Source of the DNA: Desulfobacterales bacterium
GTDB taxonomy: Bacteria; Desulfobacterota; DSM-4660; Desulfatiglandales; Desulfatiglandaceae
DNA length: 6,010 nucleotides
Direction: 5' to 3'
NCBI GenBank assembly: GCA_022013615.1
Contig: JAKLQB010000847.1
Span: 1-6,010 of the forward strand
The position numbers were made by a program, and so were the translations under genes. Positions 294-5,773 of the stretch are shown here, piece by piece. Under the pieces are notes generated by a model. That model was not told the DNA's origin. It saw only the letters and a program-made list of their open reading frames with translations, and made no database searches. How positions within the stretch are numbered: position 1 is the stretch's first letter; each line of letters opens with the position of its first letter.

Positions 294-518
294 TTAATCA
301 TCAGAAAATGGGCTTCCAACGAAGCCGATCTTGAAGAGCGCTTGGCGCATCTGCTAGGGATCCACAAGCTTTCCGTCAAAGTGGACAATGGCTTTCTTCT
401 CCGGGAAGCTCGCTTCTACTCTTCGGACGCCATCAATTTTTTCAAGTGCACAGACCACATTTAACTCGCAGCCAATGCAATCCAGCCCTTCAACACGCAA
501 CACGATCTTTTCCTCCAT
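294..518 (-). pseudogene. HMA heavy-metal-binding domain protein with in-frame TAG at codon 55
   Basis: Reading from ATG 518-516, with GGAG 8 nt upstream, gives a 74-codon frame interrupted once by TAG at 356-354. Before the stop it is a clear heavy-metal-associated (HMA) domain: V-E-G-L-D-C-I-G-C-E with the metal-binding CxxC at residues 14-17, then a helix, I-D-G-V-R-R-V-E-A-S (28-37) and K-A-I-V-H-F-D (42-48). After the TAG the same frame continues with the expected final helix and strand, QMRQALFKIGFVG, and ends at TAA 296-294. The total length matches a single HMA domain of about 70 residues. HMA proteins bind Cu(I), Zn(II), Hg(II) or similar and pass them to transporters or enzymes. Conservation on both sides suggests a very recent nonsense mutation, a sequencing error, or read-through, possibly as pyrrolysine. 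A product ending at residue 54 would lose the last third of the fold. It starts 41 nt after the SMC-like gene. Confidence 0.8.
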
Positions 519-1577: not shown

Positions 1578-1895
1578 TCAATCAGTTTTGCCTGATAATT
1601 CATTCCTCTCATTCTTTAATTGATGCCGACGGCGGATCTCATCGCACAGCTCCTCCTGCATGGGGATGATGGCCTCATAGACAAGTTCTTCATCCAATGC
1701 GACACTGGGGAGAGATTTGGCCTTAAGCTCCTTAAAACGCTGAATCCCTTCGCGCGTGCGCATGTCCCATTCTTGCACTTCAATAAGACCTTTAATATCC
1801 TCCGGTAAGACCCTTACCGATTCCGCCATATAGACGCAGGCCAGTCATTGATTGAAATCAGTTAAAAGCACATCCACAACGACCTTTTGCGCCAT
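1578..1895 (-). CDS. Thioredoxin-like selenoprotein, ULAC motif (Sec17 encoded by TGA)
   Basis: The frame starts at ATG 1895-1893 behind a strong GGGAGGA site, runs 16 codons (MAQKVVVDVLLTDFNQ), meets TGA at 1847-1845, then continues L-A-C-V-Y-M-A-E-S without interruption to TGA 1580-1578, giving 105 residues if the first TGA is selenocysteine. The product is a small thioredoxin-fold protein: a first hydrophobic strand, the redox motif U17-L-A-C20, a helix, strand VQEWDMRT, and a cis-proline segment S-L-P-S-V-A-L followed by the characteristic P-x-QEEL tail. TGA occupies precisely the position of the nucleophilic cysteine of CxxC, the usual place for Sec in such families. A perfect 7-bp hairpin lies 32 nt after the UGA and serves as a SECIS candidate. 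A start at ATG 1829 would delete the first strand and active site and has no good ribosome site. It is probably a thiol or selenol oxidoreductase; the substrate is unknown. It begins 16 nt after the TSCPD gene. Confidence 0.92.
1802..1820 (-). promoter_or_regulatory. Candidate bacterial SECIS element for the ULAC selenoprotein
   Basis: In the minus-strand RNA, CGGUAAG-GGU-CUUACCG forms seven Watson-Crick pairs around a three-base GGU loop, with a flanking U-G pair. The loop begins 32 nt after the UGA at 1847-1845. Known bacterial SECIS elements lie within the coding sequence with the apical loop roughly 16-37 nt after the UGA and a G in the first two loop positions; both hold here. The exposed G-U resembles the SelB-contacting loop of E. 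coli fdhF, although the bulged U of that element is not present. SelB binding is inferred. Confidence 0.75.
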
Positions 1896-1911: not shown

Positions 1912-2880
1912 CTATTCCACCCTTAAGATATTAAAGTCAATCTCTCCACCGTTTCTTTCCAAGAGCCCCCAGGCCAACCCTTTATCATTCAATGCAGGCC
2001 CTATGCTAATAAAATCTATCCCCCCTATCTGCCACCGGCCCCATCTCCTTATCTGGCTGAAGAGGATTACCTGGGCGCTGAACTGGGGTACCATGGCTTC
2101 CAGGGCTGGAAACACTGTTTCGTCCTTTAAAAACTGCGTCAGATCGCAGACCATGTTCATTTCTAAGGCAAAAGGCTCAAAATCAGAAAAATCAGGAAGA
2201 TCACGTATATACTTCCCAAAAAAAGCCATGCCTTTCTTTTCACCCAACCGGAAGGATAGGACCTGGGGAAGACGGACCAGATAATCCCTTTCCTTTTGAT
2301 TAAGGCCATGGAAACCTGGAGGCTCTTGACCATTTGCATACCTGAAGTCAAGTTCTCCCTGAATGACTAAAATTTCTTCCTTTCGAATTCGCTTGATCAG
2401 ATCCTCATTGTTCGCAGAATTCCCTGTCATGTTTCCAAGAGAGTATATAATCTCTACTTCCTCTTTATGAATATTTTCAATAAGGCCTTGCAGGAGTTCA
2501 CTGTGTCCTCCCAGGTCGCCAATCAGGCCAATGCGCTTCCTGGGCTCGGGATCTGAATAAACCTTAAATGATCGGGCAGGCTCAAGGCTACCATCCATAG
2601 TGGCTTTCAGGGCTTTAGCCAACTGATCCGGACATGACGTGCCATTCCTGCAAGTAATTTCTCCAATGAGTTCCAATACATCATTTACTGGTCTGTCCTG
2701 CAAAAATCGGCTTACTAACTGGGCATTGCCCGGGCATCCCCCGCCCACGAATCGCACCTCTTTAACTTCGTCTCCTTGAATCTGGAAATGGATTTCCGGG
2801 GGACAGACGCTTTGGGTAGGATAAACATACCGAAGAATTTTTTCATCGGGTTTCAATGTATCAATCCTTTCCAGCAGCAT
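1912..2880 (-). CDS. TSCPD-domain protein fused to a degenerate metallophosphoesterase domain
   Basis: A two-domain protein of 322 residues. Residues 1-90 form a TSCPD domain: YPTQSVCPPEIHFQI (20-34), V-G-G-G-C-P-G-N-A (45-53) and the namesake T-S-C-P-D (81-85), with cysteines 26, 49, 77 and 83 as likely metal ligands; related modules occur at the C-terminus of B12-dependent ribonucleotide reductase. Residues 115-322 resemble a YfcE/MJ0936-type calcineurin-like phosphoesterase: I-G-L-I-G-D-L-G-G-H (117-126), I-I-Y-S-L-G-N (144-150), V-I-Q-G-E-L-D (172-178) and I-S-I-G-P-A (291-296). The metal-binding motifs are eroded: D-x-H reads D-L-G, GD reads GN, GN(H/C)D reads GELD, and the late GHTH motif is missing, so catalysis is doubtful. 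ATG 2880 overlaps the upstream selenoprotein by 20 nt. An alternative TTG at 2898 has GGGAG just upstream and would add six residues. The stop is TAG. Function unknown. Confidence 0.85.
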   Translation of the reverse strand: MLLERIDTLKPDEKILRYVYPTQSVCPPEIHFQIQGDEVKEVRFVGGGCPGNAQLVSRFLQDRPVNDVLELIGEITCRNGTSCPDQLAKALKATMDGSLEPARSFKVYSDPEPRKRIGLIGDLGGHSELLQGLIENIHKEEVEIIYSLGNMTGNSANNEDLIKRIRKEEILVIQGELDFRYANGQEPPGFHGLNQKERDYLVRLPQVLSFRLGEKKGMAFFGKYIRDLPDFSDFEPFALEMNMVCDLTQFLKDETVFPALEAMVPQFSAQVILFSQIRRWGRWQIGGIDFISIGPALNDKGLAWGLLERNGGEIDFNILRVE

Positions 2881-3163
2881 TGGAGATGTATCTTTCAAGA
2901 AACTCCCTTAGTTCCTCCTGACCAGGCGTTTGATCAAATACCAAATCACCATCGATAAATATGGACGGAACCGGGGCGGGTCTTCCAAGTTTTTTCGAAA
3001 GCTCATTATATCGTATTGCACCTTCAATTTTAGTAGTGATTGATTTTTCATACTTTATGGCATCGCCAAACTCCGGAGCCACTGCTTCGACCACCCTGGC
3101 CATGTATTCACAGGGGATTCAGTGTTGCCCTTCGTGCAGGAGTTCCAAATGAATCGTTTTCAT
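2861..3163 (-). CDS. Thioredoxin-like selenoprotein, UIPC motif (Sec15 encoded by TGA)
   Basis: ATG 3163-3161 is preceded by GGAGGGAGG, the strongest ribosome site in the window. Fourteen codons (MKTIHLELLHEGQH) lead to TGA at 3121-3119, after which the same frame reads I-P-C-E-Y-M-A-R-V-V and stays open to TGA 2863-2861, 100 residues in all. The UGA falls at the first position of a C-x-x-C redox motif (U15-I-P-C18) at the end of the first strand. Downstream come a helix, then a strand and linker (IKYEKSITTK), the cis-proline segment P-V-P-S-I-F-I-D-G-D, and a C-terminal helix introduced by P-G-Q-E-E-L. This is the same architecture as the ULAC protein two genes on, including the YMA after the motif, though overall sequences are well diverged. 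Calling the gene from ATG 3103 would remove the active site. It is the first gene of the apparent operon; likely a selenol-based disulfide oxidoreductase of unknown partner, perhaps one of its neighbours. Confidence 0.92.
3088..3102 (-). promoter_or_regulatory. Candidate bacterial SECIS element for the UIPC selenoprotein
   Basis: The minus-strand RNA can fold as UGGCC-AGGGU-GGUCG: five pairs, two of them G-U, around a five-base loop with G at its second position. The loop starts 21 nt after the UGA at 3121-3119, within the range known for bacterial SECIS elements. The stem is weaker than that of the ULAC gene. A competing fold pairs CCCUG (3115-3111) with CAGGG (3098-3094), which would place a larger loop too close to the UGA. 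Confidence 0.5.
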
Positions 3164-3209
3164 CTTTTTCCTCCCTCCATCCGTTTTTCCATGGGTATTG
3201 CGAAATCGG

Positions 3210-4524: not shown

Positions 4525-5067
4525 CTAAAATTCGATTCCCTTTTGTGCATTGATCCCCTGATTAAAGTGATGTTTTATTTCTGTCATCTCGGTGACAAGG
4601 TCTGCAATCTCTATTACCTCTTTCCTTGCATTTCGTCCAGTCAAAACGAGATGGAGTTCGGGAGGTTTGTTTTGAACGACTTCCATCAGTTCACTCATCT
4701 CTATCAGGCCAAAATAGATGGCTATATTTATTTCATCTAATATGATCAAGTCATAGGCTTTCCTAGCCATAGCCTGTCGGAAGGCTTCAAGCCCCTGGTG
4801 GGCCATGTGCATATCCATAGGTTCACAAGTCCTTGTTTTAAAAAACACGCGCCGCCCAAATTGCTTTATGGTAATGGGTAGATCGGTTTTTTCCAATGCC
4901 TTTATTTCACCAATACCCCTTTGTTTTTTCATAAATTGTAAGATAAGCACCCGCATTTCATGTCCTGCAGCCCTCAGAGCCATTCCTAAAGCAGTCGTGG
5001 TTTTTCCCTTGCCATTGCCTGTAAAAACGATAATCAATCCGTGTTGCCTTCGAGTTCCCGTCACCAT
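4525..5067 (-). CDS. cobO: Corrinoid (cob(I)alamin/cob(I)yrinate) adenosyltransferase
   Basis: A 180-residue CobA/CobO/BtuR-type ATP:corrinoid adenosyltransferase, which transfers the 5'-deoxyadenosyl group of ATP to the Co(I) corrinoid in adenosylcobalamin synthesis or salvage. Visible features: GLIIVFTGNGKGKTTTALG with P-loop G-N-G-K-G-K-T-T (17-24), V-L-I-L-Q-F-M-K (40-47), a Walker B-like D-L-I-I-L-D-E-I-N (106-114), V-L-T-G-R-N-A (141-147) and the family's C-terminal E-I-K-H-H-F-N-Q-G-I-N-A-Q-K-G-I-E-F. Length is typical. ATG 5067 has a GGAGG site 5 nt upstream; the earlier in-frame TTG at 5079 overlaps that site and is rejected. The stop is TAG at 4527-4525. I saw no cobalamin riboswitch in the 120 nt upstream and no other cobalamin gene in the window. 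Corrinoid-dependent enzymes are abundant in anaerobes of this type. Confidence 0.96.
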   Translation of the reverse strand: MVTGTRRQHGLIIVFTGNGKGKTTTALGMALRAAGHEMRVLILQFMKKQRGIGEIKALEKTDLPITIKQFGRRVFFKTRTCEPMDMHMAHQGLEAFRQAMARKAYDLIILDEINIAIYFGLIEMSELMEVVQNKPPELHLVLTGRNARKEVIEIADLVTEMTEIKHHFNQGINAQKGIEF

Positions 5068-5186
5068 CCAAGCCTCCAAGTTTTGCAGGTCAGTTTTTAG
5101 AAAGGAAAACTACAACAGGACCCGGGCATTTGGCAAGGTATTATTGTTTTTTCTATTTGATTAATCCGATATGAGCTATCGTGGAT

Positions 5187-5773
5187 TTAACCTTTTGATC
5201 GCTCACTGTTGTCGGGTTCACAGGTGCAGACGACCATGTTGGTTCGGGCGGACATCAAAGGTGCGATAATAAACCGGAAACAAGCTGCGGCGGCAGCGCC
5301 CCCAAGTAGAGGGGCAGCGATGTAAACCCAAAAGAATCCACCCTTAGGACCAGGGATAGCGATTGAGCCCCAGCCGGCAGGAAGGAAATGATCCGAGGGC
5401 CAAAATCACGAGCCGGATTGATTCCTGCCTGAGTCAAAGGAGCAGTAATGGCGATTATGGCCGAGACTGTTCCGCCGACAAAAATAGGGGATGATCCCTC
5501 GCTTGGCCGCCCCACATTACACCCTTCTGTTAACAAAAAGATCATCAGGACAAGTATAAACGTGCCAATCCCTTCCACAAGCATGGCCGAGCCCATAGAT
5601 ACCTTAAACCACAGTATTGGAACACCGGGATTGGGGAAGTATTCTCCAAACATCATGGCGGTACGCATGGATTCCGGGCTTCCACGAATGATTGCATTAG
5701 CCGACTCGTAACCGACAATGTTACCGTGAAAAACAAGCAGCACCGTCGCGCCGGCAGCGATGCCGAAATTCTC
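5187..5773 (-). pseudogene. glpF: glpF-like aquaglyceroporin (MIP family) remnant, N-terminus missing, frameshifted
   Basis: The C-terminal half of a MIP-family channel, which conducts glycerol or other small neutral solutes across the inner membrane. From about 5767 one frame reads F-G-I-A-A-G-A-T-V-L-L-V-F, then the GlpF-like A-I-I-R-G-S-P-E-S, a transmembrane segment (MLVEGIGTFILVLMIFLLT), another containing the extracellular-half motif G-I-N-P-A-R-D-F-G-P-R. At 5368-5377 (next to a G4 run) the frame breaks: the continuing homology W-G-S-I-A-I-P-G-P-K-G-G-F-F-W-V-Y-I-A-A-P-L is in another frame and ends at TAA 5189-5187. A one-base deletion explains it. Upstream of 5773 the frame meets TAG (5776-5774) and TAA, and the first three membrane segments with the first NPA are not found in any frame up to 6010. 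It is therefore a doubly damaged gene. A sequencing error could explain the frameshift but not the missing half. Confidence 0.85.

What the first reader, a model, noticed from the sequence alone, without database searches (positions are those of the whole stretch)
2861..3163. Second hidden selenoprotein with a UIPC active site in the same operon
Seen: ATG 3163 with GGAGGGAGG, 14 codons, TGA at 3121-3119, then I-P-C-E-Y-M-A and an open frame to 2861. The TGA again falls on the first Cys position of CxxC, and a cis-Pro segment (V-P-S) follows as in thioredoxin folds. Two independent occurrences of the same arrangement within 1.3 kb make random nonsense mutations or sequencing errors very unlikely.
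Basis: partly seen in the sequence, partly recalled or inferred. Interest (0 to 1): 0.9.

Follow-up and report, generated by a model that had tools for sequence, protein, structure and literature searches.

The report
Selenocysteine thioredoxin-like protein, HUIPC family
The TGA in this small gene is almost certainly read as selenocysteine in the active site of a thioredoxin-like protein, a family that databases already know, so the find is real but mostly not new.

Summary
Confirmed. On the minus strand, ATG 3163-3161 with a strong ribosome site is followed by 14 codons, TGA 3121-3119, IPCEYMA and an open frame to 2861. The read-through product scores 150.7 bits against NCBIfam NF047660 "HUIPC motif thioredoxin-like (seleno)protein" (cut-off 105), a family listed in a 2026 review. 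Of 31 other genomes, 25 have TGA at the site, 6 Cys, none another codon. Of 33 fetched database proteins covering the site, 30 have Cys and 3 Trp. Synonymous constraint is by far strongest at codons 22-25 and holds a small hairpin in 24 of 24 TGA genes and 0 of 5 Cys genes. Two TGA genes found later have it; one of two later Cys genes also pairs there, with another sequence and loop. The model is a thioredoxin fold. The substrate is unknown; neighbours point to corrinoid and methyl-transfer chemistry (inference). The paralogue 1.3 kb downstream (QULAC) also has a conserved TGA and a clearer hairpin, and passes no NCBIfam cut-off; it is the less-known part. The window's own genome is not held, so its Sec machinery is untested.

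The parts
2861..3163 (-). HUIPC-family thioredoxin-like selenoprotein gene (100 aa, Sec at residue 15, stop TGA 2863-2861)
   Evidence: NF047660 150.7 bits vs cut-off 105; alignment; AlphaFold model pLDDT 94.9
3119..3121 (-). in-frame TGA read as selenocysteine (first position of UxxC)
   Evidence: TGA in 25 of 31 other genomes, Cys in 6, no other codon
3088..3102 (-). SECIS-like hairpin UGGCC-AGGGU-GGUCG, positions 20-34 counted from the first base of the TGA
   Evidence: synonymous constraint strongest at codons 22-25; four core pairs in 24 of 24 TGA genes and 0 of 5 Cys genes; held-out: 2 of 2 TGA genes, but also 1 of 2 Cys genes by the four-pair rule; RNAalifold picks the same stem
3170..3178 (-). 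ribosome-binding site (GGAGGGAGG) before ATG 3163
   Evidence: sequence; GGAGG at 6 nt spacing
1578..1895 (-). paralogous QULAC thioredoxin-like selenoprotein gene (TGA 1847-1845), same cluster
   Evidence: every row above 55% identity has TGA at the site; homologous to the HUIPC family; below every NCBIfam cut-off
1803..1819 (-). SECIS-like hairpin of the QULAC gene, CGGUAAG-GGU-CUUACCG
   Evidence: 94.6% of cells paired over 29 sequences, A-U to G-C change on both sides in 2; present in the window's own fold
1912..2898 (-). TSCPD-domain protein (open frame; true start probably further in), between the two Sec genes
   Evidence: PF12637 55.1 bits, TIGR03905 70.4 bits
3540..4184 (-). Rossmann-type (weak, sub-threshold TrkA_N) protein upstream, kin near HUIPC in 4 of 14 loci
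4525..5079 (-). ATP:corrinoid adenosyltransferase CobA/CobO
   Evidence: PF02572 217.2 bits, NF004637 201.8 bits
560..1612 (-). short SMC/RecF-like ATPase
   Evidence: PF02463 151.6 bits; kin in L004 and L012

Best explanation
The gene encodes a 100-residue thioredoxin-fold selenoprotein of the HUIPC family. Ribosomes start at ATG 3163; the Sec machinery reads UGA 3121-3119 as selenocysteine, probably guided by a small hairpin 20-34 nt from the UGA; the chain ends at 2861. Supported by comparison: the Sec/Cys site, the hairpin-shaped synonymous constraint, the true start and the predicted fold. Inferred: the Sec15 selenolate attacks a disulfide or similar substrate, Cys18 resolves the intermediate, cis-Pro66 lines the site, and a thioredoxin-reductase-like partner (found near 7 of 14 relatives, not seen in this window) re-reduces it. 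The likeliest setting is a thiol/selenol relay serving corrinoid-dependent methyl transfer or corrinoid handling (my confidence in that setting about 0.35; the confidence below is for the selenoprotein itself).
For: NF047660 150.7 bits vs cut-off 105 (0 of 14 control genomes over the cut-off). Sec/Cys exchange at one codon: 25 TGA, 6 Cys, 0 other in 31 genomes. Database proteins covering the site: 30 Cys, 3 Trp of 33. Synonymous constraint: GCC 20/20, GTG 21/21, GTC 22/23 at codons 22, 24, 25 (binomial tails 6e-7, 2e-9, 1e-11), while Val 8, 28 and 65 use all four codons. Hairpin core in 24/24 TGA genes vs 0/5 Cys genes; random synonymous recoding gives mean 5.1 and at most 12 of 24; 2/2 held-out TGA genes have all five pairs. 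SelB over the cut-off in 11 of 14 genomes, fragments in the other 3; a SelA match in all 22 over-cut-off class genomes; tRNA-Sec over gathering in 10 of 12 genomes tested, 3 of the 5 TGA carriers among them. Model pLDDT 94.9, thioredoxins among the best matches. Setting: CobW-type GTPase near 9 of 14 loci, CobA 8, TrxR-like 7, RACo 5, MtaA-like 5, MeaB 5.
Against: The window's own genome is not held, so its SelB, SelA and tRNA-Sec are untested. The hairpin is short. The window's single-sequence fold does not prefer it (z +0.93), no pair shows a change on both sides, and column shuffles match it (405 of 500). One held-out Cys gene (L077) also makes the four core pairs, with another sequence, without the fifth pair and without the loop G. 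Its support is synonymous constraint in related genes, not covariation. Milder codon bias also appears at codons 23, 43, 56, 67 and 79 (tails about 1e-4). Genome G002 has TGA but only a 33.9-bit SelB fragment at a contig end and no tRNA-Sec over gathering; G343 has TGA and no tRNA-Sec over gathering; both may be incomplete. SelA is over the cut-off in 278 of 291 class genomes, so co-occurrence with it says little. No substrate or reductase is identified. The corrinoid link is neighbourhood only; RACo and MtaA-like genes are not in this window.
Confidence: 0.92

Rival explanations
1. The gene really starts at the internal ATG 3103 and makes an 80-residue protein without the active site; the TGA is just a stop upstream.
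For: 134 of 185 fetched HUIPC-type database proteins are annotated from that Met, including close kin P0001 and P0002.
Against: Residues 3-14 are conserved as protein; Cys genes run straight through; 0 of 24 TGA genes have a ribosome-binding core before Met21, against 21 of 24 before an upstream start; the short product would lack the first strand, the UxxC site and the start of the first helix of a compact fold.
Confidence: 0.03
2. The TGA is a sequencing error or a nonsense mutation in a decaying gene.
For: One substitution separates TGA from a Cys codon; the aquaporin and heavy-metal-domain frames elsewhere in the window look incomplete or interrupted.
Against: The same TGA lies at the same codon in 25 of 31 other genomes, with strong protein conservation and synonymous constraint downstream.
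Confidence: 0.01
3. TGA is read as tryptophan or another ordinary residue because the organism uses a different genetic code.
For: Three of 33 database proteins show Trp at the site, as gene callers produce under such codes.
Against: In the TGA-free genomic genes the residue is Cys, in 6 of 6 over the cut-off; the gene itself and the QULAC gene end in TGA stops; most genomes of relatives carry Sec machinery.
Confidence: 0.01
4. A selenoprotein as described, but a metal(loid)-handling or general disulfide reductase, not part of corrinoid chemistry.
For: DUF2284 and heavy-metal-domain genes lie in the same window; ArsE-type thioredoxins lie near 7 of 14 loci.
Against: CobA lies within 4 kb in 8 of 14 loci, against about 1.5% per locus by a rough chance bound; RACo and MtaA-like genes occur in 5 of 14 loci.
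Confidence: 0.45

Closest known systems
HUIPC motif thioredoxin-like (seleno)protein, NCBIfam NF047660
   Same: Full-length match over the curated cut-off, same H-U-I-P-C motif, Sec or Cys at the site, desulfobacterial hosts
   Different: Nothing essential. The CLPC paralogue that sits near HUIPC in 13 of 14 relatives is not in this window
Classical thioredoxin (PF00085 type; PDB 2trx, 1v98)
   Same: Fold and the place of the CxxC motif at the start of the first long helix; cis-Pro place by inference
   Different: 10-24% identity in the listed structural matches; the motif is UIPC; Pfam gives only sub-threshold Thioredoxin_3 and Thioredoxin_2 matches
Small thioredoxins PDB 1fo5 and 1nho (archaeal origin recalled)
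   Same: Closest solved structures by sequence profile (1.4e-06 and 7.5e-06); TIGR00411, MJ0307 family thioredoxin, matches weakly (25.6 bits)
   Different: Far below the TIGR00411 cut-off of 92.75
HSGNPxU motif (seleno)protein TsoX, NF045809
   Same: Another selenoprotein family in the same review table
   Different: 15.1 bits vs cut-off 52: not a member

Membership tests
NCBIfam NF047660 HUIPC_Trx_selen | score over the curated cut-off of 105 bits across the model | tested here: met
   150.7 bits, positions 1-91 of 91
NCBIfam NF047660 HUIPC_Trx_selen | H-U/C-I-P-C motif | tested here: met
   HUIPC at residues 14-18
NCBIfam NF047660 HUIPC_Trx_selen | thioredoxin-like fold | tested here: met
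Bacterial selenoprotein | UGA exchanges with Cys codons in homologues | tested here: met
   25 TGA, 6 Cys, 0 other in 31 genomes
Bacterial selenoprotein | SECIS hairpin shortly after the UGA | tested here: inconclusive
   conserved hairpin supported by synonymous constraint and by absence in 5 of 5 Cys genes, present in 2 of 2 held-out TGA genes but also, by the four-pair rule, in 1 of 2 held-out Cys genes; no covariation and no single-sequence support; the spacing rule I compare with is recalled
Bacterial selenoprotein | SelA, SelB and tRNA-Sec in the same genome | tested here: inconclusive
   own genome not held; present in most relatives
Bacterial selenoprotein | selenium in the purified protein | not testable with these tools
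   needs the bench
Classical thioredoxin PF00085 | Pfam match | tested here: not met
   no PF00085 row listed at E up to 1; Thioredoxin_3 19.2 bits vs cut-off 24.8
NF047660 for the QULAC paralogue | score over the cut-off | tested here: not met
   41.1 bits vs 105; another QULAC protein 44.7 bits

The most novel reading that the evidence does not exclude
HUIPC and the QULAC protein, which passes no NCBIfam cut-off, are two linked selenoproteins of one undescribed desulfobacterial thiol/selenol relay that serves corrinoid-dependent methyl transfer. In 291 class genomes, 21 of 22 with HUIPC over the cut-off also have QULAC, but only 4 of 269 without. QULAC itself would be a new selenoprotein family with its own SECIS hairpin.
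Probability: 0.35. Interest if true: 0.6.

Novelty: new member of a known kind. Interest (0 to 1): 0.35.

Why it matters
It shows again that gene callers cut selenoproteins short: 134 of 185 fetched database copies of this family begin after the active site. The locus pairs a listed selenoprotein family with one that has no model over its cut-off and a clearer hairpin, and sets both beside corrinoid genes. That gives a concrete place to look for what thioredoxin-like selenoproteins do in anaerobic one-carbon metabolism.

Tried and rejected
Internal start at ATG 3103, sequencing error, pseudogene and alternative code were considered and rejected (see rivals). Single-sequence folding of 54 nt from either TGA gave no significant structure (z +0.93 for HUIPC, -0.11 for QULAC). 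Rfam found nothing in the window, even at E up to 5. SelA co-occurrence was uninformative because 278 of 291 class genomes have it over the cut-off. The window's organism could not be identified: no own genome is held, although its QULAC protein is 99% identical over 66% of its length to one from a Desulfobacteraceae MAG (P0142). Haft and Tolstoy 2025, which the review cites for this family, is not held, so I cannot say whether it also describes the QULAC protein or the neighbourhood. I looked for QULAC in NCBIfam and in passages of two papers only. The protein tree (46 rows, 13 database Cys proteins chosen by me) hints that Cys is ancestral, Sec was gained once and lost once, but many forks are weak and I do not rely on it.

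Rows left out of counts: eight class-scan loci (L015, L016, L017, L022, L024, L027, L032, L034) are the same genomes as L001, L003, L006, L008, L010, L011, L012 and L014 and were counted once. L037-L044 are below the NF047660 cut-off and were dropped; one of them (L040) is an HCIPC fragment with an in-frame stop, and L041 has neither TGA nor Cys at the site. L078 (Cys, 97.9 bits) is below the cut-off and is not among the 31. Six of the 14 genome-contig loci (L002, L004, L005, L007, L009, L013) came by tblastn and were not scored against the cut-off. Of the 185 fetched HUIPC-type proteins, 18 fit neither pattern and were not classified; the listings they come from are capped at 120 of 239 and 120 of 523. 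In one search one duplicate QULAC row (L053) was dropped, giving 28 loci plus the window. In one search one 62% row (G175:C113) covers only residues 23-98 and says nothing on the site. In some searches the two window queries carried one extra last residue, because the TGA stop was also read through; searches used the right end.

Full report
What is there. The read-through product is 100 residues. Under table 11 only the 80-residue piece from ATG 3103 is open.

Family. The product matches NCBIfam NF047660, HUIPC motif thioredoxin-like (seleno)protein, with 150.7 bits over the full model (cut-off 105). I saw this family in passages of the 2026 review PMC13188914 (Table 1 rows), which credits Haft and Tolstoy 2025. 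That paper is not held and I have seen nothing of it. A full-text search for the accession found only the review; a search for "HUIPC" found the review and one unrelated paper (listing only).

Is TGA selenocysteine? Fourteen loci came from genome contigs; all 14 have TGA at the site. A class sample of 291 genomes gave 22 over the cut-off: 17 TGA and 5 Cys. Eight genomes are in both sets, so 28 are distinct: 23 TGA, 5 Cys. A phylum sample of 395 genomes gave 4 over the cut-off: one already counted, two new TGA, one new Cys. In all, 31 genomes besides the window: 25 TGA, 6 Cys, no third codon. Of 185 HUIPC-type database proteins fetched (capped listings), 33 reach across the site by my pattern, 30 with Cys and 3 with Trp; 134 start at the internal Met; 18 fit neither pattern. 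I take the Trp as TGA misread by gene callers (inference).

Start. Before an upstream start, 21 of 24 TGA genes (23 loci plus the window) have a ribosome-binding core, one of them (L018) only at a start 18 codons upstream; L019, L023 and L025 have none. Before the internal Met none of 24 has. Residues upstream of the TGA are conserved.

Hairpin. In these 24 genes synonymous codon choice is by far most constrained at codons 22, 24 and 25: GCC 20/20, GTG 21/21, GTC 22/23 (binomial tails 6e-7, 2e-9, 1e-11), with GAA 20/23 at codon 26. Val at 8, 28 and 65 uses all four codons. The next strongest columns (23, 43, 56, 67, 79) have tails of about 1e-4. These codons form UGGCC-(A/C)G(G/U)(G/C)U-GGUCG, positions 20-34 from the first base of the UGA. 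The four core pairs hold in 24 of 24 TGA genes and all five in 23; in the 5 Cys genes both counts are 0. Two thousand random synonymous recodings reach a mean of 5.1 and at most 12 of 24. In genes found later, both TGA genes have all five pairs. Of two Cys genes, L078 does not pair, but L077 makes the four core pairs with a different sequence, without the fifth pair and with a loop lacking the G; about one in five random recodings would also pair, so this fits chance, but it is a result against a clean rule. Also against it: no pair changes on both sides, column shuffles score as high in 405 of 500, and the window's own fold prefers another structure (z +0.93). RNAalifold picks the same stem on the alignment. 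The genes are related, so the counts are not independent trials. The idea that a bacterial SECIS sits at about this distance is recalled.

Machinery. SelB is over the cut-off in 11 of 14 genomes; G007 and G011 have fragments near 190 bits, G002 a 33.9-bit piece at a contig end. All 22 over-cut-off class genomes have a SelA match, G283 only a weak one (3.9e-30), but so do nearly all genomes of the class (278 of 291 over the cut-off). tRNA-Sec is over gathering in 10 of 12 genomes tested; 7 of these 12 carry the Cys form, and of the 5 TGA carriers 3 pass (G007, G011, G317) and 2 do not (G002, G343). The window's own genome is not held.

Neighbourhood. Within up to 10 kb of the 14 loci (several contigs shorter; clusters, one or two members of each annotated): CobW-type GTPase 9 of 14, CobA 8, thioredoxin-reductase-like 7, ArsE-type thioredoxin 7, DUF2284 6, RACo 5, MtaA-like URO-D 5, MeaB 5, the Rossmann protein 4, TSCPD 3, SMC-like 2. 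A Cys paralogue with CLPC sits near HUIPC in 13 of 14; tblastn with three such proteins finds none in the window besides HUIPC and QULAC themselves. CobA has 1 to 4 matches per genome, so eight of 14 is far above a rough chance bound (9e-12, treating loci as independent). The window itself holds CobA, the Rossmann protein, TSCPD, SMC-like and DUF2284 genes. L004 has the nearest order, including an aquaporin. This suggests corrinoid or methyl-transfer chemistry but does not prove it. Kountz and Balskus (PMC10418091; abstract and passages) link other corrinoid methyltransferase clusters to selenium; the passages I saw do not mention these proteins.

The paralogue. The second TGA gene (1578-1895) belongs to a sister family with QULAC in the motif. 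Homology to HUIPC is clear and the two Sec sites align. In one search the 30 rows above 55% identity (29 distinct, the window included) all have TGA, while related QCAAC proteins at 40-48% identity have Cys. One further row, L074, is 48% identical and also has TGA. Its hairpin CGGUAAA-GGU-UUUACCG is clearer: 94.6% of cells paired in 29 sequences, with A-U replaced by G-C in the window and L004; 8 of 29 break the outermost pair and 3 the innermost. Shuffles reach its paired percentage in 4 of 500, its number of both-side pairs in 105 of 500. It passes no NCBIfam cut-off (41.1 bits to NF047660). In the class sample, 21 of 22 genomes with HUIPC also have QULAC at 60% identity or more, and 4 of 269 without (counted by hand; Fisher p 5e-27; no correction for kinship). 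Its model is also thioredoxin-like in order of elements (pLDDT 88.9; not searched for folds).

Verdict. The observation and the selenoprotein reading are right. The family is already named, so the find is a new member of a known kind. What is less known is the QULAC sister and the shared corrinoid setting.

Noticed in passing
window 1578-1895 (-), TGA 1847-1845, hairpin 1819-1803: QULAC thioredoxin-like paralogue with conserved TGA and a clear GGU-loop hairpin; below every NCBIfam cut-off, possibly an unnamed selenoprotein family.
   Followed up: yes
window 297-518 (-): Heavy-metal-associated domain frame interrupted by one in-frame TAG; best NCBIfam match is the metal-binding (seleno)protein NF041115, 58.6 bits, below its cut-off of 95. 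Nonsense codon or recoding not decided.
   Followed up: partly
window 5255-5743 (-): Aquaporin/MIP frame that matches only the C-terminal half of the family; may be broken or frame-shifted upstream.
   Followed up: no
L001-L003 and L005-L014, near HUIPC: A Cys paralogue with motif CLPC sits near HUIPC in 13 of 14 loci; not found in the window nor near HUIPC in L004.
   Followed up: partly
L008:5646, L011:3984, L013:9115 and others: A QCAACGYM Cys relative of QULAC; the one scanned (L009:6818) matches NF047660 at 31.4 bits, below its cut-off.
   Followed up: partly
window 1912-2898 (-): TSCPD domain with a long C-terminal part that has no Pfam match over its cut-off; by eye it resembles a calcineurin-like phosphoesterase (not tested).
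   Followed up: no
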